Source: Candidatus Altimarinota bacterium (GTDB taxonomy: Bacteria; Patescibacteriota; Gracilibacteria; JANQMV01). From it: 59,580 bases of DNA. Within the stretch, counting starts at the first letter, position 1. Each line of letters opens with the position of its first letter. The position numbers and the translations under genes were made by a program. Shown here one piece after another: positions 6,963 through 39,320 of this stretch. The notes beneath the pieces are model-generated. The model was given only the letters and a program-made list of their open reading frames with translations, was not told the DNA's origin and did no database searches. The stretch spans positions 1 through 59,580 of the forward strand of contig JANQMV010000014.1 of NCBI GenBank assembly GCA_028279865.1, read 5' to 3'.

Positions 6963-8055
6963 TTATTTTATTGTTTGCTTTTCGAGCCAGCTTTCAATAA
7001 ACAAGCCAATCTCTCCATCCAAGACTTTGTCGGCTTGGGATGTCTCTGTTTCTGTGCGGTGATCTTTTACCATTTTATAGGGATGCAAAACATAAGAACG
7101 AATTTGATTTCCCCAAGCAGCTGATTGATGTTCACCTTTTAGTTCGGCATGTTTGGCTTCGTCTTCTTTTTGTTTTTGCTCAAGCAAACGTGCTTGTAAA
7201 ATTTGTATTGCCTGCTCACGGTTTTGTGCTTGAGACCTTTCATTTTGACATTGCACAACGAGATTGGTTGGTAAATGAGTGACGCGTACTGCAGAATCAG
7301 TTGTGTTGACGTGTTGTCCTCCTGCTCCGGAAGCACGAAATGTATCAATCTTTAAATCTTTCGGATCAATCTTAACCTCATCAGTTTTCGCAACTTCAGG
7401 ATAAATTTCTATTAAAGCGAAAGAAGTTTGTCTTAAATTTTTCGCATTAAAGGGAGAGAGTCTTACTAGGCGATGTACGCCTTTTTCTGCCTTAAGATAC
7501 CCATAAACGAGCTCACCTTTGACACTTAATAAGCAGCTTTTAATGCCGGCTTCTTGGCCGGTTTGCTTGTCAATGATGCTGTTTTTCCAGCCTTTTTTTT
7601 CAAAAAATCGCAAATACATTCTCAGCAACATTTCCGCCCAGTCTTGAGCATCTGTCCCACCGGTTCCGGCTGTAATATTTACAATAGCATTGGAATTATC
7701 ATATTTTTTATTCAAAAAAAGCTCTAAATGAGCTTTTTTATATAATTTTGCTAATTTGTGATAACCATTCTCAATTTCAGCAAACTCATTGGAATTTTCT
7801 TCAATGATTTCACTGAGCTCAATTAAATCTTGAACTTCCTTCACTAAATTTTTCCAAAGTTCAATTTTTTTTTGTTTGGCAGTTATGCTCTGTAAGGTTT
7901 GTTGAGCTTTTTGATTATTGTTCCAGAAATTTGTTTCTTTCGTAAAAACTTCAAGAGCTTGAATTTCTTGCTCTAATTTAGCAAAGTCAAACATAGTCCT
8001 TATCGCGATTTATTTTATCGCCCAAGGAGTTAAGTTTTTGTAAAAAATCCTGCAT
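6963..8055 (-). CDS. prfB: Peptide chain release factor 2, with probable +1 programmed frameshift
   Basis: RF2 normally ends translation at UAA and UGA. The open frame from 7994 (343 aa) starts MFDFAKLE, but homology begins earlier: an upstream frame from ATG 8055 (MQDFLQKLNSLGDKINRDKDYV) meets TGA at 7989-7987, and a +1 shift after GTT joins it to DFAKLEQEI, aligning with the classical RF2 N-terminus. The codon-recognition motif SPF is present (about residues 180-182 of the 343-aa frame), as is the catalytic GAGGQHVN. The loop after SPF reads NAKNLRQTSF where E. coli and Bacillus have D-S-G/S-G-R-R-H-T-S-F, so the conserved His is Gln (codon 7428-7430). Retaining RF2 where TGA means glycine is unexpected. 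Whether the RQTSF variant is CPR-wide cannot be judged here. Confidence 0.9.
7986..8001 (-). promoter_or_regulatory. RF2-type +1 frameshift site (AAGGA..TAT GTT TGA C)
   Basis: On the coding strand the site reads AAGGACTATGTTTGAC. The E. coli prfB site is AGGGGGTATCTTTGAC, the same length with an internal Shine-Dalgarno-like purine run, TAT, a slippery NTT codon and TGAC. Here the slippery codon is GTT rather than CTT. The purine run is only two bases from the ATG at 7994, too close for normal initiation but right for stimulating a frameshift. If TGA were simply read as glycine, the zero frame would give V-G-L-C and stop at TAA. Confidence 0.72.
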
Positions 8056-10137: not shown

Positions 10138-10905
10138 ATGCTAGAAAAAAAGCAAAAACAAGAAAAAAAAGGGATTCAAGAATTTGATTGGAAAAAATTT
10201 ACTAAAACTCCAAAATTTAATTTTGGTTTAGCTGCCTTCTTTTTCATTCTATTGATTGGTTTGCTCGCATTTCCCAAATATAGTGAATTTGTTAAAAAGA
10301 AAGCTGATTTAAAAAAAATTTTTGCAGAAATAGAAGGAGACAACGCCAGCGGGCAATTTTTTGGACTAAAAGGAGAGCTTAAAAAAGTTGAGGCAGAGTA
10401 TAAGGAAACAAAACAAAATGTGGATAATTTAAATGCGGAAAAACAGGCTACGTTAGACTTTGTTTTTCCGGAGGCGGAAAAAATCAATTTTATAACCCAG
10501 CTTTTAGAACGTTATGCGATTGATCATGACACGTCTCAAGAACCCTTCGAACTAACAAGTATCAGCTTTGCCAAACCAAGAACGCAAACAAATACAAAGC
10601 CTAAGCCGGGAGAAAAACCCAAAGTACCGACACCGGTTGCTTACTTACCCGTGCAAATAAACCTTCCGATTAAAGCTAGTGAAAAGAACTTTGAAGATTT
10701 TATTCAATTTATTCAGCGATCCGGCTCATTAGAACAAGATGACTTTTATGGTAAAGAAATACCGGTTCCCCTTATGACGATTGAGTCTTTGAATTTTACT
10801 TATTCGGAAAACCCAGAAAGATTGAGCCAGCAGCTCGTAAATGCAAATTTTATTTTAAATACTTATATTCATTTAGATAATAAAAATGTCAGCACTACAA
10901 AATAA
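10138..10905 (+). CDS. PilO-like pilus assembly protein
   Basis: A 255-residue bitopic membrane protein: a Lys-rich cytoplasmic start, one transmembrane helix at about 28-47 (LAAFFFILLIGLLAF), a coiled coil (about 50-105), then a globular domain with a Pro-rich loop (PKPGEKPKVPTPVAY). This is the PilO layout, and the place between PilN-like and PilB genes is standard for type IV pilus operons. The start ATG lies 2 bp after the preceding stop, and its 3' end overlaps the pilB start by 20 bp, implying translational coupling. There are no in-frame TGA codons although its neighbour pilB has five. Assignment is by topology and synteny rather than strong sequence motifs. Confidence 0.68.
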   Translation: MLEKKQKQEKKGIQEFDWKKFTKTPKFNFGLAAFFFILLIGLLAFPKYSEFVKKKADLKKIFAEIEGDNASGQFFGLKGELKKVEAEYKETKQNVDNLNAEKQATLDFVFPEAEKINFITQLLERYAIDHDTSQEPFELTSISFAKPRTQTNTKPKPGEKPKVPTPVAYLPVQINLPIKASEKNFEDFIQFIQRSGSLEQDDFYGKEIPVPLMTIESLNFTYSENPERLSQQLVNANFILNTYIHLDNKNVSTTK

Positions 10906-12130
10906 ACTTCAAACAGCAGTTGTTTCCTGAAATATTCCTCAGATTGTCATGAGTTGTATTTCTCTTGCTCTTGATACATGAGCAAGTGATATTCACATTG
11001 AGCCGGAAAAAGAAGTTGTCAGAATTCGCTTTAGAGTAGATGGAACATTATCTCAAATTATTGAATATCCTTCCAATATCCACCCTGCGATTGTTTCGCG
11101 TGTTAAAATTATGTCAAATTTGAAAATTGATGAACAGCGTATCCCACAGGACGGAAGAACACAGGTTGTCACAGAAGATAACAAAGAAATTGACTTACGT
11201 GTCTCAACTTTACCGACAGTTAATTGAGAAAAAATTTGTACACGTTTACAAGATAAAAACAAAGAAATTCCAAAATTTGAACAATTGGGTATTCAGGGCA
11301 AATCACTCAATCACATCCAAGAAACTCTCTCTTATCCTAATGGTATTTTTCTGGTTACCGGTCCGACCGGTTCAGGTAAAACAACGACACTGTACTCAAG
11401 CTTGAATGTTTTAAATGAAATTGATGTCAATATTATGACGATTGAGGATCCGGTTGAATATCAAATGGATTGATTAAACCAAAGCCAGGTTCATCCAGAA
11501 ATCGACTATTCATTTGCCCTTGGTTTGAGAACCGCTTTGCGCCAAGACCCCGATATTATTATGGTAGGTGAAATTCGTGATCAAGAAACAATTGAAATTG
11601 CAATTCGTGCGGCATTGACGGGACATTTCGTACTTTCTACGATTCATACCAACAGTGCCACAAGTACTCTAACGCGTATTTTGGACATGGGTGTAAAACC
11701 ATTTTTAATTACTTCTTCAATTCGCACAATTTTAGCGCAGCGTCTTGTCAGAAGGATTTGTAGTGATTGTAAGGAAGAATATACTCCTGAAAAAAAAGAA
11801 ATTGAAACATTGGAAAGTGTTTTTAAAAATGTAAACCCCGATGCAGTAGAATCATTTGATTTAACACAAATACAAAACACCAAGCTTTATAAAGGCACAG
11901 GGTGTGAGAAATGTGGTAATTCCGGATTTAAAGGAAGAGTGGGGCTTTATGAAATTATGCGTATGAATAGGGAGATTACCGAAGCTGTTTTAGCGTGAAG
12001 AAATGAAACGGAGATCGAAGAAGTTGCTGTCAAAAATGGTATGATTCTTTTACAACAAGATGGTTGTATCAAAGCAATGCTTGGTGCGACGACTTTGGAG
12101 GAGGTTTTTAGGGTTACTAGAAGCTATTAG
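10886..12130 (+). CDS. pilB: Type IV pilus assembly ATPase PilB/GspE (five TGA codons read as Gly)
   Basis: Hexameric secretion ATPase that drives pilus extension, 414 residues. It lacks the usual N-terminal N1 domain and starts near the N2 domain (ASDIHIEP). Walker A GPTGSGKTT, Asp box IEDPVEY, Walker B DPDIIMVGEIRD, His box STIHTN, and a zinc-type CxxC pair (CSDC...CEKC) are all present. The frame is broken in the standard code by TGA at 10928, 10979, 11225, 11471 and 11996; at least four are glycines conserved in the family (DT-G-ASDIH, TVN-G-EK, QMD-G-LNQ, VLA-G-RNE), while GGN codons are used elsewhere in the same gene. This gene is the strongest evidence for UGA = glycine. TAG stop. Confidence 0.93.
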
Positions 12131-12138
12131 AAAAGATT

Positions 12139-12873
12139 ATGAAGCAATTTGAGCAAGATCAATGAATAGATAACATTAGGAAACCAGAAGTAATTATTAC
12201 CCCTGAGGATTACTGAAGATGGGGTGAAGAAAAAAAGATACAAGCCGAAAAAGATGCAAAAAGTGAAAACGCAGCTAGGCAAAAGGACCATAAGGAATCT
12301 CTTAGAATAAAATGCATGTTAAATCGTTCAGTAAAACTAGAACAAATTAAAAAGCACTTAGTCGAATATTATGCGATTGAAGATACTAAAGTTTTAGACA
12401 GATTAGGTTATATTGAAGCAATAAATTTACCACCACAACATCAAAAAAGCTTCGATTTTTTGAACAATGAAAGACTTGCAGGTACAATGATTGTTGTTGT
12501 ACCTGATGATTTATGGTTCAAAGGAGAACAACCATCAGAGTCAAATGCAGAAGGAGATGTTATTTTGTTTAAACAAAGTTATTTTGAAAGTGCAGATAAT
12601 ATTGCCTGGATGACGCATGAATTGGCTCATTGTCAGAAATATAAAAATGCCCCTGAGCAATACGAACAGGATTCTCAAACATATGCTTTTCAAGATATTG
12701 TGGGCGAATACGCATACCCCAATAACATAGTTGAAAGATACACATTTACGAAACAGTTTGAATTTTTGAAGCAAGAAGGTTTGTCTAGAGAAGAAATTTT
12801 TGAAATGATTAAAAAAGAGTACGAAGAGAGTGATTTGCCTTTTTTTGAAAGATTGTTGGATGAAATTTTTTAA
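12139..12873 (+). CDS. Hypothetical protein with HELAH zincin-like motif (two TGA codons)
   Basis: Starts 8 bp after pilB and is probably in the same operon. The full 244-residue reading needs TGA at 12163 and 12214 to be read as sense; in the standard code only the segment from 12316 is visible. The N-terminal 60 residues are charged and probably helical. The C-terminal part carries WMTHELAHCQKYK, an HExxH zinc-binding site, with acidic residues downstream (EQYEQDSQTYAF) that might supply a third ligand. It could be a small metalloprotease or a non-catalytic zinc protein; I do not recognise the family. It has no signal peptide or membrane segment, so it is probably cytoplasmic. TAA stop. Confidence 0.65.
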
Positions 12874-24422: not shown

Positions 24423-25523
24423 ATGCCCAAAGTTGCGATTGTACATGAAATGTTGGTGAAGCTCGGGGGAGCGGAGCGTGTTTTGAAGGTACTTACACAA
24501 ATGTTTCCGGAAGCTCCGGTTTACACACTTTTTTATGATCAAAAAAAATGTGGAAATGAGTTTGCAGATACAGAAGTTAGAACCAGTTTTTTGCAAAAAT
24601 ACGTAAACTGGAAATTTCCTTATCAATTTTTAATTCGTAAAATGCCTCTTGCAATTGAGAGTTTTGATTTCTCAGATTATGATTTGGTGATTTCAAGTAG
24701 CTCGGCTTTTGCGCATGGAATTGTGACAAATTTGGAAACAAAACATCTGTGCTATTGCCACTCCCCGATGCGCTATGCGTGGGATTATACAAATGAGTAC
24801 AAAAAAGAAAAAGGAGGCAAACTAAAACAATTTCTAATTTCCTGGTTGCTGCACAAAGTCAGGATGTGGGATCAGATTGCCGCAAATCGGGTTGATCAAT
24901 ATATTGCGAATTCCACCAATGTTCAAAAAAGAATTCAGAAATACTACCGCATGAATTCTCAAGTAATTTATCCTCCGGTCAAACTTGAGCGTTTTAAAGT
25001 AAAGAAAGAACGTCAAAATTACTATTTAATAGTTTCTGCTCTAAGCGGGTTTAAAAGAATTGACTTGGCGATTAAAGCTTTTAATCAGCTTGGTGAAAAG
25101 CTAATTGTTATTGGTGATGGACAAGAGAGGAAAAATTTAGAAAAAATTGGCGATGACAATATTGAATTCAAAGGTCGTTTGCCTGACGATGAAGTAACAA
25201 AATATATGCAAAATTGTAAAGCGTTAATTTTTCCGGGTGAAGAAGATTTTGGAATCACGCCTGTAGAAGCGATGGCTTGTGGAAAGCCCGTCTTGGGTTA
25301 TGGAAAAGGAGGATTACTGGAAACAGTTCTTTCTGGAAAAACCGGTGAGTTTTTCGATAAACTAACAGTAGAATCTTTTATAAAGGGTTTTGAAAAGTTG
25401 AATAAAAATTACCTCAAGTATGATGCTAACGAAATTCGTAAACAGGCGGAGAAGTTTTCGGAGGGGAGGTTTAGGGAGGAAATAATGAAGTCAGTCAGCA
25501 AGGCATCACCCTGAGCGAAGTAA
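24423..25523 (+). CDS. Group 1 (GT4) glycosyltransferase
   Basis: GT-B fold retaining glycosyltransferase. The N-terminus KVAIVHEMLVKLGGAERVL is the acceptor-side start typical of GT4 mannosyl/galactosyl-transferases; the donor-side half has GDGQERKNLE, PGEEDFGITPVEAMACGKPVLGY and GGLLETV with the conserved E-x7-E. Likely role in surface polysaccharide or glycolipid assembly; sugar unknown. In the standard code it ends at TGA 25512; with TGA as glycine the end is S-P-G-A-K with TAA at 25521-25523. This tail and stop come from a dispersed repeat (25503-25561), so the natural C-terminus has probably been replaced by repeat sequence. Confidence 0.85.
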
Positions 25524-32703: not shown

Positions 32704-33030
32704 ATGAACTTAGCAAAAGTAGAAAAATTAAAGGCAATGATTCAACAAGCGGAATTTTTAGAAGAAGCAACAAAAATGTTGTTTTTGGAAAAGTTGCCAT
32801 ACCTAAATGAAAAGAAACTCGTTGATTTGTATGAAGTTTTTGAACATGATTTGGAGAAAAGGAATAAATTGAAAAAAAGAAAAGTGGAAATTCTAAAAAA
32901 TTATAAAGTGAAAATTAAAAGTATCTACCAAAAGGCGAAACACCTTGTCGTTTCAATGAAGGAGAAAGCTGTTGCAAAGATTGATGAAAGAGAGCTAAAC
33001 ACCTTGGATCATGAACTCAATAACCTCTAA
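32704..33030 (+). CDS. Small coiled-coil protein, type A copy 1 of the 32.7-36.3 kb cassette
   Basis: A 108-residue, Lys/Glu-rich, almost entirely helical protein. The N-terminal third reads MIQQAEFLEE...FLEKLPYLNEKKLVDLYEVFE, matching position by position the related protein at 34189 (IERLPNLDEEQLKDLLAVLE). It precedes a larger UGA-containing gene by 10 bp, and the second type A gene also precedes a UGA-containing gene. I do not recognise a family; a chaperone or adaptor for the larger partner is inference. TAA stop, no TGA codons. Confidence 0.65.
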   Translation: MNLAKVEKLKAMIQQAEFLEEATKMLFLEKLPYLNEKKLVDLYEVFEHDLEKRNKLKKRKVEILKNYKVKIKSIYQKAKHLVVSMKEKAVAKIDERELNTLDHELNNL

Positions 33031-33040
33031 TTAAGAATTT

Positions 33041-34159
33041 ATGCCAGCCAAAGGAGAGACACCACCGGTGGATTACAGTATGGATAATTTAAAAGATGTT
33101 TTTGATCTTGAATTCCAAGCTTCAGATGCAACTACTTTGGAGGAGGAGGTTGATCAAAAGCTCTTAGCCTGATTAGAAGCAGATTTAGATAAAGACATTG
33201 CTCGTAATTTAAATTCTGCGGAAAAATCAGAATTAAAAAAAATAAAAGAAGAATTAACACCATTGATTTTACAGGCAAATGATTTGTGGGATACGAGCCA
33301 AGAAGGTTTTCAGAAATTAAAAGAAGAGACAGGAAAGCTTAATGCTGACACGAGGACAGCTTTGATGAAGATTATTATGCCTCTTATAGAAAATCACGAA
33401 GGTTTACAGCTGTTAATGAAAAAATCTGCAGAAAGAGATCGCTACAATCTGGATTATCAAAATTTAGAGCAAATATCGAAAAATGCTGATAAAAAAATCG
33501 ACTCTGCCTTAGAGCAAAAGATGGGCAAAATGGGGAAGTTTCTTAACTTTCTTGGTCAAAAATTTTTGGGTATGTCTGTCAAAGATATGCTTAAAGATCC
33601 GGATTCTCCTTATGGAGATTTACTGCGCGGAATTTTTGAAATCAACGTTGATGAAAAGGATTTAAGAAAAGCAAAAAATCCTTTTGAAGAAAAGTTCAAA
33701 GAAAAACAAAAAGAATTGGAAAAAACTCTTGAAGAGGGAGATTTGGCTAAGATTGAAGGAATGGAGGTGTTAAAAGAAGAAGATAAAGAGGCAAGTACGA
33801 TTTTGAAATCAATGCGGAAATACTCGATATGTGATGGTTTGAAGCTAAATACTTATTCTAAGGAAGAGCAAACGATGCAACTTAAGGCACAAAACTGGAA
33901 TCAAGTTATCTTTCTGCGCAAATTTATTCCACATGCGACGATTCCTGAGCAGTTTAGTGATTTTACAAATAAATACTCGGATTACCTGCCCGATGACTTA
34001 CTATCAGCAAAAAACTCTGAATATAAACCTGCGGAAAAAAAAGATTTTCCCGATATTGCGAATGTGACCAGCGAAGGTTTTGATATTACGATTGGTTGGC
34101 AAAGTGCAAAAAATGTTTTTAACGCAATTGATGATTGACTGAAGGATAAAGAGAAATAA
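33041..34159 (+). CDS. Hypothetical helical protein, type B copy 1 (two TGA codons)
   Basis: With TGA as glycine the frame runs ATG 33041 to TAA 34159, 372 residues; TGA codons are at 33170 and 34136. The protein is charged and mainly helical with no signal peptide. A glycine/hydrophobic stretch near residues 160-185 (GKMGKFLNFLGQKFLGMS) may be an amphipathic helix, and the C-terminal 130 residues look globular (FLRKFIPHATIPEQFSDF). It is tightly spaced after the type A gene. No recognised family. In the standard code the first 43 and last 7 codons would be lost. Confidence 0.7.
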
Positions 34160-34188
34160 CAAGAAACAAGGTAAGTTAATTTTAATCT

Positions 34189-34512
34189 ATGCAAGAACTT
34201 CTTGATAAAATCATCGAATTAATCCAAAACAAGCAAATTGGAACACGTGAAAAGTCCGAATGGATTGAAAGATTACCGAATTTGGACGAGGAACAACTGA
34301 AGGATTTATTGGCTGTCTTAGAAGCACAAACAAATAAGGAAATGGATATTTTAGAGCAGAAAAATATTATTAAATTAGAAGCACAAACACGGGAGCTGGA
34401 AGATCTAACGGAAAAAGGAATAAAGCTAATTTATCAAAGAGGAGAAGAAGTAAGCAGACAAGATGAAGTATCAGAAAGAGAAGCAGCTATTGCAGAGTTA
34501 CAAGCATTATAA
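34189..34512 (+). CDS. Small coiled-coil protein, type A copy 2
   Basis: A 107-residue helical, Glu/Lys-rich protein related to the one at 32704: both have LIQ-x(n)-LPxLxExxLxxLxxVxE in the first half, then a long charged helix. It lies 29 bp after the first type B gene and 28 bp before the second. No TGA codons; TAA stop. The repeated A-B-A-B order is the main clue that A and B proteins work in pairs. Confidence 0.68.
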   Translation: MQELLDKIIELIQNKQIGTREKSEWIERLPNLDEEQLKDLLAVLEAQTNKEMDILEQKNIIKLEAQTRELEDLTEKGIKLIYQRGEEVSRQDEVSEREAAIAELQAL

Positions 34513-34540
34513 ATATTAGATTTTAATTTATAAATTTAGG

Positions 34541-36343
34541 ATGCAGTTGTGGAATTTACAATTAGGTTTAGAACAAGATACGCAGTTTTTTGGAGAAAAA
34601 AGAGCGATCTTCTGAATGGAACAAGCTGCCGATTTTGCTGTGAGGCAAGCAGAAAAAATTCAACTGGCAGAAGGAGAAAAACAAGATTCAGAAAAAAATC
34701 CGGAAGAAGCAAAACAAAAAGCTGAGGAGATTACGGCTAACTTAAAGAGAAGTTTGGTTGAAAACGTAAGAACAGCTGCGCAAATAGGCTGAATTGATTC
34801 AAGCAAACTTTTTTGAGTAATAGACAGTGAAATTGGTCCGCAATTTCAAGAAAAGCTGGATGCTCAGGGGCTTAGATTAAACATTTTGACGCTAATTGCA
34901 AATCTTCGAGCTGATTTGAAAGATGGCGATTTGGATCAGGATTATGATTCGACGGAAGATTATAAGGCGATCTTGACTGATAAGGAAAAAGGTCGTGTTA
35001 CTCTGAGTATTAGCGATGCGATTAGAGGTAAGCAAAATATCGAATGAATTGGTGAAGTTCAATTTAGTGATGAAATTTTGAACGAACTCCTGAATGCCGT
35101 TATGGAAAATAAAACAGATCCTGCGCAAAAAGATGCGGACTATCTAAAACAACAGTTTGAAAAAAGTGATTCTCCGGAATCAAAAATACTTGTGAGAGGT
35201 TATGCCGAAATTGTTAATAAGTATGAAGTAAAGCAAGAAGAAAAAGCTTTGATTCAGGATACTATCAATTCATTAGAGCCCCCTTATAACCGTCTTTCTG
35301 GAAATGAAAACTTAAAAAACTTAATTTCGCGCAATTTTGATATCAATAAAAATGAAATGGGTGATGTTATTTTATTTGATCACAAAAATTCAGCTGAAAA
35401 AATTAATAATCCTGCCGAAGCTATTCAAAAATTCTTAGACCAACAAATCCCTGAAATTAAAGATTTAGCAAAAGAAGATTGAGAATTACCAGTAGATTTG
35501 CTTAAACAAATTGAGCAAAAAGATAGCTTACAAAAACAATCTATCGATGCAATTAGGGCTCAATTACAAGCTGCAAAAGAGTACGATGAATCATCTGAAA
35601 ATAAAATGACTTTTGGTAATTTAATCAAAACAATTGCAGAATGGATTAGCGCTATTTCTTCAGGAAATTTTGACAAACTTGGTGGACTGACCAAAGGAGT
35701 TAAATTAACTGAAACGGAAAGCGAAACATATAAATTTGATATGGTGTATGATGCGGAAAAGGAAAAACCTAGCTCAGACGAAGTGCGTGGCTATCTAAAA
35801 GGAAGGACACTCACAATCAACGAATGAACAGATAATGAGCAAGATGTAGAGATTACTGATCCGAGAAAACAGATCAAAAATATTGAAATCAATGCAGATT
35901 GAAAAATTTCCTTTACTGCAAAAGAGTTAGTCGATCCGGGAGAAGTTGAACAAAAATCAGAAAAACCGGAAAAAACTGCTAAAAAACTAGAGATGGAAGA
36001 TTTAACAGGAGAAGTTGCAAAAGAAACATTACAAAAGATTAATACTGGAGAAGCTGCCACATTAGGAACAATTTGAGACAAGCCTCTGCAAATACAAAGT
36101 TTTGATGGGCTTCAATTTGATACATTAAATTGAGTGGAGAATAAACTTCAGCTTGGTTCTGGTGATTTAGGGCAAGCTTTCCTTGATTTAAAATTAGATG
36201 AAAGCTGAGAACTAGTCGTAAAACCAGAAGTTGTCAGTATTTTTAACAATAAATTTGATGAAAATGTAGCCGTTGAAGCAGAAGGGAATTTAATTAAATT
36301 AAAAAAGATTGAAAACAAAGATAAGAAAAATCCGGAATTATAA
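34541..36343 (+). CDS. Hypothetical large protein, type B copy 2 (ten TGA codons)
   Basis: A 600-residue frame from ATG 34541 to TAA 36343 with ten TGA codons, the highest number in the window. Contexts such as NAD-G-KISF, DES-G-ELVV and GTI-G-DKPL are typical turn glycines. The N-terminal 400 residues are helical, with an amphipathic segment near 350-375 (FGNLIKTIAEWISAISSGNF); the C-terminal 200 are beta-rich. There is no signal peptide and no recognised family. In the standard code it falls into many short fragments and would be missed. It lies 75 bp upstream of the hydrogenase genes, but a functional link is not evident. Confidence 0.78.
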
Positions 36344-36418: not shown

Positions 36419-37423
36419 ATGGACATTATTCGAAAAATCACAAAAGCAAATTTATGCGGTCGTGGCGGAGCAGCTTTTCCTACGGCAAAAAAGTGGAAAA
36501 TGGTGAAAGAAGCAAAAGGTGAAAAAAAATACGTAATTGCCAATGGCTCGGAAGGAGAGCCGGGGGTTTTTAAAGACACCTACATTGTAGAAAAATACCC
36601 GGAAAAATTAATTAAAGGAGTGCTTTTGGCAATGGAAGCTGTGGGAGCACAGAATGCTTATCTCTACTTAAGGGCTGACTTGTACGAAAAACATAAAAAA
36701 AACCTCAGAGAAATTATTCAGGAAAAGATCCTTCGACAAGCTCAGAACGACACGATAAAAATCACTGTTTTTCGTGAAGACGGTAAATACTTAAATGGAG
36801 AAGAAACAACTTTATTAAACTCAATCGAAAGAAAAAGAAGTGAACCGCGCTATAAACCTCCTTATCCGACCGAATGTGGTTTATGGGGATGCCCGACATT
36901 GGTGAATAATGTCGAAACCTTCTATCAAGTAGCACAAATTGCCGATGATAATTATAAAAACCAACGTTTTTATTCCATCAGCGGTAAAGTGCAAAATGAA
37001 GGCGTTTTTGAATTGGAGGTAGATTTAACAGTTGATCAGGTTCTAAAAAAAACTAAAAACTATCCCGAAAGAGCATTCTTCGTACAAACCGGAGGAGGTG
37101 CTCATGGATTTATTTATACAAAAGACGAATGTAAAAACGCCCTTCTGCAAGGTGCGGGAGCTTTAGTCGTACATGATTATCAAGAGGATCCTCTGGAAAT
37201 TTTAAAATTTTGGACAGAATTTTTTCTTTTACGAAATTGTGGACAGTGCATACCTTGTCGCGAAGGTTTTTATCGGATTAATCAACTTTTGAAACAAGAC
37301 GAAATTGACTACGAACTGATCAAAGAAATTTTATATGTCATGGCAGACGCGAGTTATTGCGGATTAGGACAGTTTGCGCCAGAAGGGTACTTGGATTTTA
37401 TTAAAAAGATCTTGAAAAGGTAG
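36419..37423 (+). CDS. hydB: [FeFe]-hydrogenase flavoprotein subunit, NuoF-like
   Basis: FMN- and NAD-binding subunit of a bifurcating or NAD-linked hydrogenase, 334 residues. The NADH/FMN region starts LCGRGGAAFPTAKKWKMVKEA, followed by ANGSEGEPGVFKDTYIVEKYP; the SLBB-type middle leads to the 4Fe-4S site CGQCIPCREGFYRI near residue 275, plus a later Cys in YCGLGQFAPEG. It lacks the N-terminal 2Fe-2S and C-terminal ferredoxin extensions of long HydB. A 27-bp dispersed repeat (36727-36753) is built into the frame and encodes ILRQAQNDT. No NuoE-like hydC gene is adjacent. TAG stop; hydA begins 125 bp later. Confidence 0.86.
   Translation: MDIIRKITKANLCGRGGAAFPTAKKWKMVKEAKGEKKYVIANGSEGEPGVFKDTYIVEKYPEKLIKGVLLAMEAVGAQNAYLYLRADLYEKHKKNLREIIQEKILRQAQNDTIKITVFREDGKYLNGEETTLLNSIERKRSEPRYKPPYPTECGLWGCPTLVNNVETFYQVAQIADDNYKNQRFYSISGKVQNEGVFELEVDLTVDQVLKKTKNYPERAFFVQTGGGAHGFIYTKDECKNALLQGAGALVVHDYQEDPLEILKFWTEFFLLRNCGQCIPCREGFYRINQLLKQDEIDYELIKEILYVMADASYCGLGQFAPEGYLDFIKKILKR
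36727..36753. repeat. Half of a dispersed repeat inside hydB
   Basis: GATCCTTCGACAAGCTCAGAACGACAC matches the GGATCCTTCGACTACGCTCAGGATGAC end of the intergenic element at 54129-54262. Here it is in frame in a coding gene. Confidence 0.6.
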
Positions 37424-37430
37424 TTACTTT

Positions 37431-37451
37431 CCCCTCTTTACCAAGGAGGGG
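37431..37451. repeat. Hairpin CCCCTC...GAGGGG between hydB and hydA
   Basis: A 6-bp stem with a nine-base loop, followed by GCAGGGCGAG. The same CCCCTC-type motif recurs at 40933-41048, 49397-49441 and inside the miaA fusion gene. Confidence 0.5.
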
Positions 37452-37547
37452 CAGGGCGAGCTTTTTCAATTCAGCACAATACTTCTTCCAGCCTCTACCG
37501 CATTGCGGAAAATGAGAGGAACAAAAAAAATAACAACTAATAAAAAA

Positions 37548-39320
37548 ATGCCAAAAATCAATGTACAAATTAACGGCAAAAGATATACAACAGAAAAGGA
37601 GGTAAGCATTCTTAAGTTTTGTCAGGAAATTGGTGTTGAAATTCCGACCTTATGCTTTCACCCCGACATCAAATTTCATGCAAATTGTAAACTTTGTGTT
37701 GTTGAAATCGAGGGATGGCCAAGACTCAATCCTGCTTGTGCGATCAAGTTACAAGAAGGAATGAAAATTCAAACCGATACAGACAGAGTTCACAGAACAC
37801 GTCGGATGATTTTGCAGTATGTTTTTGGAGAACATGTTACGGACTGTAAAGACTGTTTGCGTAGCAACAACTGCAAATTACGCAAATATGCGAAGCAATA
37901 CAAAGTGGAAAAACCCATTTTTAAACCGCGCAAAAAAAATCGTCCACTCTATACTTGCGGAAATACAATTACTTTTGATACACGAAAATGTATCGAATGT
38001 CGAAACTGTATTGATGTTTGTCGTAAGCAAGGGATCGGTTTTATCAATTTAGAAAGAAAAGGATATCGATCGACAGTCAAACCACACGATGAACCTAAAA
38101 ACGACTGCATTTACTGTGGACAATGTATTAATCACTGCCCTGTAGGAGCAATTCACAGTCGTAAAGAATTTGATTGTGTGATGGATGAAATTAAAAATAA
38201 AGATAAAATTGTGGTTTGCCAAATTGCCCCTTCTATTCGGGTCAGTATCGGTGAAGAATTTGGTATTCCTCATGGTCAGATTATGACAGGTCAACTCGTT
38301 GCTGGCGTCAAAAAACTCGGTTTTGACAAAGTTTTTGATGTGCAAACAGGAGCTGATTTTACAACAATCGAGGAAGCTAAAGAATTTGTAGACAGGCTGC
38401 AAAACAACAAAATTTTACCAATGTTTACAACTTGCTGCCCGGCTTGGTACAAATATGTAGAGCAAAAACATCCCGAATTAATTCCGAATTGTACCACAGC
38501 GCGTTCTCCCAACATGATGAACGGAGCAATTATTAAAGAGTATTATAGTAAATTAATAAACGTACCTCGTGAAAAAATTTGTGTAGTTGCGGTAATGCCC
38601 TGTACCGCCAAGAAGTTTGAAGTAGAGCGCAGGGAGCTTGATATAGACGGAGTTCCCCCTGTTGATTATGTTATTACCACTCGGGAACTAGCTCATATGA
38701 TGAGGCTGAGCCGAATTGATTTGAGTAAAATTAATGAGGAGAATTTTGATAGTCCCATCGGTGAGTCAACCGGAGCATCCGCTATTTATGGAGCTAGCGG
38801 TGGTGTGATGGAGTCAGCCTTGCGCACAGCTTATTTCTTAGCAACAGGCAAAGAGTTAAAAGATGTGAATTTTAAACAAGTTCGGGGCAGTTTGAAAGGG
38901 ATCAAGCGAGCGACTGTTGAGATTGAAGGCACAGAATTACGTGTTGCTGTGGTAAATGGCCTCGGGAATACAGAAGAAATTATTGCTGAAATAAAGCAAG
39001 ATCCGGAAGCTTACCATTACATAGAAGTAATGACCTGCCCGGGAGGCTGTATTGCAGGAGGGGGACAACCATTACCTGTCAATGATGAGATTCGGAAAAA
39101 AAGAGCAGAAGCTCTATATCAAATTGATACAAAGAAAAAAATTCGCGTCGCGCATCAGAATCCGGAAGTAAAAAAAGTATATCAAGATTTTTTTGATAAA
39201 TCTCCCGGATTGGCACATCGGATTTTGCATACACATTATGAGCCTCGTTCAAAATCGGAAGTAGAAATGTATACTTGCCCGATTATGAAAAAATTTACTA
39301 AGAAAAATTCTAATTTATAA
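37548..39320 (+). CDS. hydA: [FeFe]-hydrogenase catalytic subunit
   Basis: Group A [FeFe]-hydrogenase that reduces protons or oxidises H2. From ATG 37548 it is 590 residues; an in-frame ATG at 37512 and a TTG at 37503 are possible alternatives. In order: 2Fe-2S domain (CFHPDIKFHANCKLC), His-Cys3 4Fe-4S site (HVTDCKDCLRSNNC), two 4Fe-4S motifs (CIECRNCIDVC; CIYCGQCINHCP), then the H-cluster motifs TTCCPAWY (L1), MPCTAKKFE (L2) and MTCPGGCIAGGGQP (L3), and a C-terminal small-subunit domain. All H-cluster cysteines are present. L1 and L3 have Thr where Ser/Ala are common. With hydB it suggests fermentative H2 metabolism. TAA stop. Confidence 0.95.
   Translation: MPKINVQINGKRYTTEKEVSILKFCQEIGVEIPTLCFHPDIKFHANCKLCVVEIEGWPRLNPACAIKLQEGMKIQTDTDRVHRTRRMILQYVFGEHVTDCKDCLRSNNCKLRKYAKQYKVEKPIFKPRKKNRPLYTCGNTITFDTRKCIECRNCIDVCRKQGIGFINLERKGYRSTVKPHDEPKNDCIYCGQCINHCPVGAIHSRKEFDCVMDEIKNKDKIVVCQIAPSIRVSIGEEFGIPHGQIMTGQLVAGVKKLGFDKVFDVQTGADFTTIEEAKEFVDRLQNNKILPMFTTCCPAWYKYVEQKHPELIPNCTTARSPNMMNGAIIKEYYSKLINVPREKICVVAVMPCTAKKFEVERRELDIDGVPPVDYVITTRELAHMMRLSRIDLSKINEENFDSPIGESTGASAIYGASGGVMESALRTAYFLATGKELKDVNFKQVRGSLKGIKRATVEIEGTELRVAVVNGLGNTEEIIAEIKQDPEAYHYIEVMTCPGGCIAGGGQPLPVNDEIRKKRAEALYQIDTKKKIRVAHQNPEVKKVYQDFFDKSPGLAHRILHTHYEPRSKSEVEMYTCPIMKKFTKKNSNL

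What the first reader, a model, noticed from the sequence alone, without database searches (positions are those of the whole stretch)
32704..36343. A-B-A-B cassette of coiled-coil and UGA-containing proteins of unknown family
Two small related helical proteins (107-108 aa) each precede a larger protein (372 and 600 aa) that is only visible with TGA as sense. Spacing is 10-29 bp throughout, so this is one operon. Standard gene callers would report only fragments, so the cassette may be undescribed. The repeated small-large pairing suggests chaperone-effector or adaptor-partner pairs.
Basis: partly seen in the sequence, partly recalled or inferred. Interest (0 to 1): 0.58.

Follow-up and report, generated by a model that had tools for sequence, protein, structure and literature searches.

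The report
UGA-glycine genes beside a release factor

Summary
The A-B-A-B cassette is real and at the stated coordinates. B1 and B2 need UGA as sense, and UGA means glycine here: conserved PilB and VirB4 UGA sites in the same genome are glycine in every ortholog examined, one PilT UGA lies in the Walker A motif, and a tRNA(UCA) has glycine identity elements. A1 and A2 are too diverged for pairwise BLAST but belong to one helical family, present across the class. B1 and B2 are orphans.

The main result lies outside the cassette. The window also carries an intact prfB (RF2), with its SPF and GGQ motifs and the UGA-dependent +1 frameshift leader. None of the 25 relatives in the UGA-using families has prfB above cut-off. 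No UGA stop was clearly seen. Sense UGA is strongly clumped: many in pilus, secretion and surface-protein genes and in B genes, none in 169 of 217 sampled genes. Two-gene trees place the genome with standard-code, RF2-bearing Peregrinibacteria-type families and reject grouping it with the main UGA=Gly families.

Best reading: a separate, incomplete UGA-to-glycine reassignment with RF2 retained. The cassette is a lineage-specific pair of UGA-rich proteins with small helical partners; a chaperone/effector role is plausible but untested.

The parts
32704..33030 (+). A1, 108-aa helical protein, divergent member of a class-wide family
   Evidence: profile of relatives ranks it 8th distinct hit of 5154 ORFs but at E 0.19; alignment
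33041..34159 (+). B1, 372-aa mostly helical orphan protein, UGA codons at residues 44 and 366
   Evidence: no family; relatives: 1 of 98, weak and inside a SecA-like ORF
34189..34512 (+). A2, 107-aa helical protein, same family as A1, C-terminus AELQAL
   Evidence: E 0.0055
34541..36343 (+). B2, 600-aa orphan protein with 10 UGA codons
   Evidence: no homolog in 98 relatives, viral contigs or plasmids
6963..7994 (-). prfB: release factor 2 main frame, with SPF and GGQ motifs
   Evidence: TIGR00020 464 bits, cut-off 370; sequence
7987..8055 (-). prfB leader: 22-codon zero-frame ORF ending in UGA-C, +1 frameshift site
   Evidence: same arrangement in 6 of 6 f10 relatives examined
10886..12130 (+). 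PilB/T2SSE-like pilus ATPase with 5 UGA codons
   Evidence: Pfam T2SSE 3.6e-131 over 15-409; UGA sites 114 and 196 are Gly in 49 of 49 orthologs
12139..12873 (+). 244-aa ORF with 2 UGA codons directly after PilB; HELAH motif seen by eye

Best explanation
The cassette is an operon of two small helical proteins (A1, A2), each followed by a larger lineage-specific protein (B1, B2) in which UGA is read as glycine. It lies in a genome that is part-way through, or stably held part-way through, a UGA stop-to-glycine reassignment that arose separately from the main code-25 clade. SHOWN from sequence: UGA sits at conserved glycines; a tRNA(UCA) with glycine identity elements exists; UGA was not clearly found as a stop; an intact RF2 gene with its UGA-dependent +1 frameshift leader is present on the same contig; UGA sense codons are concentrated in pilus, secretion, surface and B genes. 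INFERRED: tRNA-Gly(UCA) and RF2 compete at each UGA, so a UGA-rich message is translated in full only when the tRNA outcompetes RF2, and genes that must not be truncated have kept UGA out. Because RF2's own synthesis needs a +1 shift at a UGA, glycine incorporation there would lower RF2 and favour the glycine state. INFERRED, weaker: A proteins are dedicated small partners (chaperone, adaptor or docking protein) for B proteins, which belong to the cell-surface/secretion programme.
For: UGA=Gly: PilB UGA sites 114 and 196 are Gly in 29 of 29 standard-code and 20 of 20 UGA-using-family orthologs; sites 15, 32 and 371 are Gly in 22, 12 and 4 of the 29. VirB4 UGA259 is Gly in 29 of 29; UGA16 had no aligned residue. 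A PilT UGA falls on the first Gly of Walker A. tRNA(UCA); it has G1:C72, C2:G71, G3:C70, U73, the rule stated for Gly tRNA(UCA) in PMC8629427 (passages). RF2; over the family cut-off in 67 of 73 relatives outside families f11/f12/f14/f22 and in 0 of 25 inside them. VirB4 carries UGA in 24 of those 25 and in 0 of the 68 others with a match; among the 99 genomes only this one combines RF2 with UGA-bearing VirB4. Frameshift leader also in 6 of 6 f10 relatives. Stops: coding segments end in TAA 153, TAG 61 (5 open), with 3 ambiguous TGA cases of 281; f10 relatives 10 TGA of 87. Distribution: 297 UGA among 5823 glycine codons in 217 segments; zero-UGA genes 169 observed, 78 expected; codon usage of UGA genes is native; among 27 genes with relatives in hand, 9 of 9 pilus/T4SS genes and 1 of 18 others carry UGA at equal median identity, 41 and 42%. 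Placement: RpoB+PilB, AU p 0.0017 against joining f11+f14+f22. A-B recurrence.
Against: RpoB alone does not reject joining this genome to f11+f14+f22 (p 0.066). The concatenated tree used LG+G4 without the mixture model and flagged long branches for G011 and G022. One MAG, no transcript or protein data; the tRNA lies on another contig (C1, 7.3 kb). In fully recoded family f22, four of five RpoB sequences also hold 0-3 UGA, so clumped use does not need RF2. RF2 may be kept only for UAA. Some surface or pilin-like genes carry no UGA. Nothing tests the A-B partnership.
Confidence: 0.6

Rival explanations
1. Complete UGA=Gly reassignment (ordinary code 25 in practice): RF2 is a leftover kept for UAA, and UGA is simply rarer in conserved, highly expressed genes.
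For: No clear UGA stops; in f22, which lacks prfB over the cut-off, four of five RpoB sequences hold 0-3 UGA.
Against: RF2 keeps SPF and the UGA frameshift sensor; RF2 is otherwise missing from all 25 genomes of the UGA-using families; at equal conservation UGA is in 9 of 9 pilus/T4SS genes and 1 of 18 others.
Confidence: 0.3
2. UGA is still a stop, and UGA-bearing genes are pseudogenes or products of occasional readthrough.
For: Intact RF2.
Against: 37 segments of 150 codons or more with 2 or more UGA but open to TAA/TAG, native codon usage, UGA at invariant glycines, a tRNA(UCA), no clear UGA stops.
Confidence: 0.04
3. UGA genes were acquired from a code-25 organism, or the bin mixes two organisms.
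For: Several UGA-rich genes are lineage-specific surface proteins; MAG assembly.
Against: UGA-bearing PilB and prfB share one contig, as PilB and prfB do in f10 relatives; PilB groups with standard-code families, joining the UGA-using families is rejected at p 5.8e-7; GC3 and codon score match native genes; contamination 0.16%.
Confidence: 0.06
4. A and B are unrelated neighbours: A is a structural coiled-coil family unrelated in function to B.
For: In relatives the A family is mostly a stand-alone gene next to unrelated genes such as greA or a tRNA synthetase; no A or B6 homolog near VirB4 in 29 relatives beyond one A hit at E 0.92.
Against: In this genome A genes sit directly next to UGA-rich B genes at four loci.
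Confidence: 0.35

Closest known systems
Genetic code 25 (UGA=Gly) of Absconditabacteria/SR1 and Gracilibacteria BD1-5 (class JAEDAM01)
   Same: UGA at conserved glycines; tRNA(UCA) with glycine identity elements; UGA absent as a clear stop
   Different: RF2 retained with its UGA frameshift leader; UGA in a subset of genes; placed with standard-code Peregrinibacteria-type families
prfB programmed +1 frameshift autoregulation (described for E. coli; recalled)
   Same: Short leader ORF ending in UGA-C with RF2 continuing in the +1 frame
   Different: Here the sensor UGA coexists with a tRNA that reads UGA, so glycine insertion becomes a third outcome
Stop-codon recoding used to time gene expression in phages (recalled; search listing only)
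   Same: A gene subset depends on a recoded stop codon
   Different: Chromosomal pilus, secretion and surface genes of a bacterium, not phage genes; timing not shown
Secretion chaperone-effector gene pairs (recalled)
   Same: Small helical protein encoded next to a larger partner, here near VirB4, VirD4-like and pilus genes
   Different: No sequence similarity to a known chaperone family found; no secretion or binding data

Membership tests
Code-25 clade (Absconditabacteria + Gracilibacteria BD1-5) | UGA decoded as glycine | tested here: met
   conserved sites are Gly (sequence inference, no proteomics)
Code-25 clade (Absconditabacteria + Gracilibacteria BD1-5) | tRNA(UCA) with glycine identity elements | tested here: met
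   rule from PMC8629427
Code-25 clade (Absconditabacteria + Gracilibacteria BD1-5) | prfB (RF2) absent | tested here: not met
   464 bits; 0 of 25 relatives of families f11/f12/f14/f22 over cut-off; PMC6851277 says no prfB in any available BD1-5 genome (passages)
Code-25 clade (Absconditabacteria + Gracilibacteria BD1-5) | Phylogenetic place inside the clade | tested here: not met
   PilB AU p 5.8e-7, RpoB+PilB p 0.0017; RpoB alone 0.066, not rejected
prfB +1 frameshift genes | Leader ORF ending at UGA with RF2 in the +1 frame | tested here: met
Class-wide A family | Helical hairpin motif (E.K/R..W...LP.M/L...Q...L..IL..E) recognised by an independent profile | tested here: met
   A2 E 0.0055, A1 only E 0.19, judged by rank
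Class-wide A family | C-terminal LLxxLxxL-type tail | tested here: inconclusive
   By the pattern tried, 8 of 16 aligned members end in it (A2, A3 yes; A1, A4, A5 no); 16 of 5154 ORFs overall
Secretion chaperone-effector pairs | A binds B; B is exported | not testable with these tools
   single-sequence models at pLDDT 45 and 39
Selenocysteine tRNA (ARAGORN label) | Sec-type tRNA with long acceptor arm | tested here: not met
   7-bp acceptor, 77 nt, only the general tRNA family RF00005 at threshold

The most novel reading that the evidence does not exclude
The genome holds a UGA-gated translation programme: pilus, secretion, surface and A-B cassette genes are made in full only when tRNA-Gly(UCA) outcompetes RF2. 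The UGA in the prfB leader closes a double-negative loop (tRNA reads the sensor as glycine, less RF2 is made, UGA is read as glycine more often), so the genetic code itself would act as a switch between a housekeeping state and an attachment or predation state.
Probability: 0.15. Interest if true: 0.96.

Novelty: new variant of a known kind. Interest (0 to 1): 0.74.

Why it matters
Codon reassignment is usually seen only after it is complete. In the sources read, UGA=Gly is confined to one lineage with a single origin (PMC13293708, passages), BD1-5 genomes lack prfB (PMC6851277, passages), and two RF2-bearing genomes labelled Gracilibacteria lacked the tRNA (PMC8629427, passages). A genome with both the glycine tRNA and a UGA-reading release factor is the intermediate that ambiguous-decoding models call for, and it makes the order of events testable. 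For annotation, the UGA genes, including pilus ATPases, VirB4 and the A-B cassette, are broken by standard gene calling.

Tried and rejected
Pfam, PHROGs and PDB searches of A1, B1, A2, B2 gave only sub-threshold hits (PDB for B1 and B2 only). B1 and B2 were sought in viral contigs and B2 in plasmids: none. B1's single weak hit (G083, E 1.5e-4) falls in the helical part of a SecA-like ORF and is taken as chance. AlphaFold models of B1 and B2 were too poor to search by fold. Horizontal transfer of PilB from a code-25 donor was rejected by tree and synteny. Selenocysteine rejected. A conserved A-B6-VirB4 cassette in relatives was not found (29 loci, best A hit E 0.92). A first Fisher table for pilus genes was miscounted (10 and 17 genes); the corrected count is 9 and 18. 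The Fisher test on stop codons used 0 of 235 from ORFs that are TAA/TAG-bounded by construction, so I rely instead.

Full report
OBSERVATION. B1 carries 2 and B2 10 in-frame UGA codons; standard translation leaves pieces. Long openness to TAA/TAG and native coding scores rule out chance. No transcription start was established; promoter-like matches were fewer than in shuffles.

WHAT UGA MEANS HERE. The window's PilB-like ATPase (10886-12130) has five UGA codons. Sites 114 and 196 are glycine in all 49 orthologs examined (29 standard-code, 20 from the UGA-using families f11, f12, f14, f22); sites 15, 32 and 371 are glycine in 22, 12 and 4 of the 29 standard-code ones. VirB4 elsewhere in the genome has UGA at a site that is glycine in 29 of 29 relatives; its other UGA has no aligned residue. 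In PilT a UGA takes the first glycine of the Walker A motif. Of 37 tRNA matches in the genome, one has anticodon UCA. ARAGORN calls it SeC, but it has a 7-bp acceptor arm, 77 nt, and G1:C72, C2:G71, G3:C70, U73, the rule used for glycine tRNA(UCA) in PMC8629427 (passages).

THE RELEASE FACTOR. The same window holds prfB (6963-7994, minus strand): 464 bits against a cut-off of 370, with the motif SPF (recalled as RF2's stop-recognition motif) and GGQ. A 22-codon leader ORF (8055-7987) ends in UGA-C exactly where the RF2 frame continues in +1, the classic prfB frameshift arrangement (recalled). The same arrangement is in 6 of 6 f10 relatives read. Read as glycine, the leader would run only two codons further to TAA. 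Across 98 relatives, prfB passes the cut-off in 67 of 73 outside f11/f12/f14/f22 and in 0 of 25 inside; VirB4 carries UGA in 24 of those 25 and in 0 of the 68 others with a match (counted from the printed rows). This genome alone of the 99 has both.

HOW UGA IS USED. I read 355,538 bases of this genome (window plus 16 stretches, some chosen because they hold pilus, VirB4 or A genes): 281 coding segments by a codon score trained on UGA-free genes. Segments end in TAA (153) or TAG (61) with 5 open, counting those whose coding end lies within 12 codons of the stop; three have a UGA just after the coding end and a TAA/TAG within 15 codons, so I saw no clear UGA stop. f10 relatives use TGA for 10 of 87 stops. 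Of 217 segments of at least 150 codons, 48 contain UGA and 37 at least two; 169 have none where 78 are expected if UGA were spread evenly over glycine codons. In the ten stretches not chosen for a target gene (L087-L096), 21 of 113 segments carry UGA. UGA genes share codon usage and GC3 with the rest. UGA-bearing genes checked include T2SSE, T2SSF, T4SS pilins, a VirD4-like coupling protein, cNMP-binding proteins, TrkA/TrkH, a C92 amidase and large PKD, cohesin, dockerin, laminin-G, TSP3 and F5/8C proteins. Twenty random UGA-free genes gave mostly metabolism, translation, division, repair and transport families and no pilus, T4SS or adhesive-repeat family. Among 27 genes with relatives in hand, 9 of 9 pilus/T4SS genes carry UGA against 1 of 18 others (p 2e-6), at equal median identity (41 and 42%), so conservation alone does not explain it; the relatives in hand had been fetched mainly through pilus, VirB4, RpoB, RF2 and A-family searches. 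Against a strict rule: some surface or pilin-like genes have no UGA, and fully recoded f22 also keeps UGA rare in four of five RpoB sequences.

PLACEMENT. All 98 relatives offered are only of the same class. The best named PilB relatives include Candidatus Peregrinibacteria. The RpoB tree puts the genome next to f10 (SH-aLRT 91; an earlier tree with fewer rows put it next to f15 and f2, 88); PilB with f2/f15/f17/f12 (81). Holding it together with the UGA-using families is rejected by PilB (p 5.8e-7, f12 included) and by RpoB+PilB (p 0.0017 without f12, 0.0007 with it; 45 genomes, 1074 columns, LG+G4), but not by RpoB alone (p 0.066). Joining it with G011 alone is also rejected (p 0.0009). So a separate origin of UGA=Gly is likely, not proven.

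THE CASSETTE. A genes lie beside UGA-rich genes at four loci: C59 (A1-B1-A2-B2), C34 (A3-B3; B3 763 codons, 19 UGA), C44 (A6-B6-A4; B6 997 codons, 23 UGA; VirB4 follows after about 195 bp), C25 (PilB-like - A5-B5-PilC-pilins; B5 8 UGA). An HMM from ten relatives' proteins ranks this genome's A proteins as its top eight distinct hits among 5154 ORFs, though A1 itself scores only E 0.19. The A profile reaches 81 of 99 genomes at E 0.01, partly by weak coiled-coil matches; inspected hits share a helical hairpin motif and many a leucine-rich C-terminal tail, usually as stand-alone genes. B2 has no homolog in 98 relatives, B1 one weak, probably chance, hit. C34 also encodes a VirD4-like protein and a C92 amidase, and B3 has a weak Lnb_N match, which fits, but does not show, a secreted-effector role.

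CONCLUSION. The cassette is an undescribed, lineage-specific operon in a genome whose genetic code looks intermediate. The mechanism I favour is competition between tRNA-Gly(UCA) and RF2 at UGA, with UGA tolerated or used in the surface and secretion gene set. The feedback through the prfB leader is a hypothesis from anatomy. No paper describing RF2 together with UGA=Gly in bacteria was found by the searches (open-licence PMC papers only); papers were seen as listings or found passages, not read whole.

Noticed in passing
G011 (family f12): PilB locus L195, RpoB locus L229: 33 of 35 PilB and 70 of 72 RpoB glycine codons are UGA, prfB is absent, yet it groups with RF2-bearing G022 in both trees; one clade of all UGA-using families is rejected at p 0.029 (long branches). 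Possibly another origin of UGA=Gly.
   Followed up: partly
G000:C53:17178-17254 (L042): tRNA-like gene with an abnormal, enlarged anticodon loop that ARAGORN cannot assign (reads ttaa); 57 bits for Rfam tRNA.
   Followed up: no
L083:2272-4380, window 24423-25523, L033:581-1396: LigA-, glycosyltransferase- and DapF-like genes whose only UGA lies within a few codons of the final TAA/TAG; may be relics of old UGA stops with a back-up stop.
   Followed up: partly
L088:7122-16981: UGA-rich cluster with dockerin- and cohesin-domain proteins side by side, a cellulosome-like pairing.
   Followed up: no
L084:15777-17189: 470-aa protein with a C-terminal C92 permuted papain-like amidase domain and 7 UGA, convergent with A3-B3 and near a VirD4-like gene: candidate secreted hydrolase.
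   Followed up: no
window 12139-12873: UGA-bearing 244-aa ORF right after PilB with a HELAH zinc-protease-like motif (by eye), no Pfam family.
   Followed up: no
window 36419-39320: NuoF-like and FeFe-hydrogenase-like genes directly downstream of B2, without internal UGA from a plausible start.
   Followed up: no
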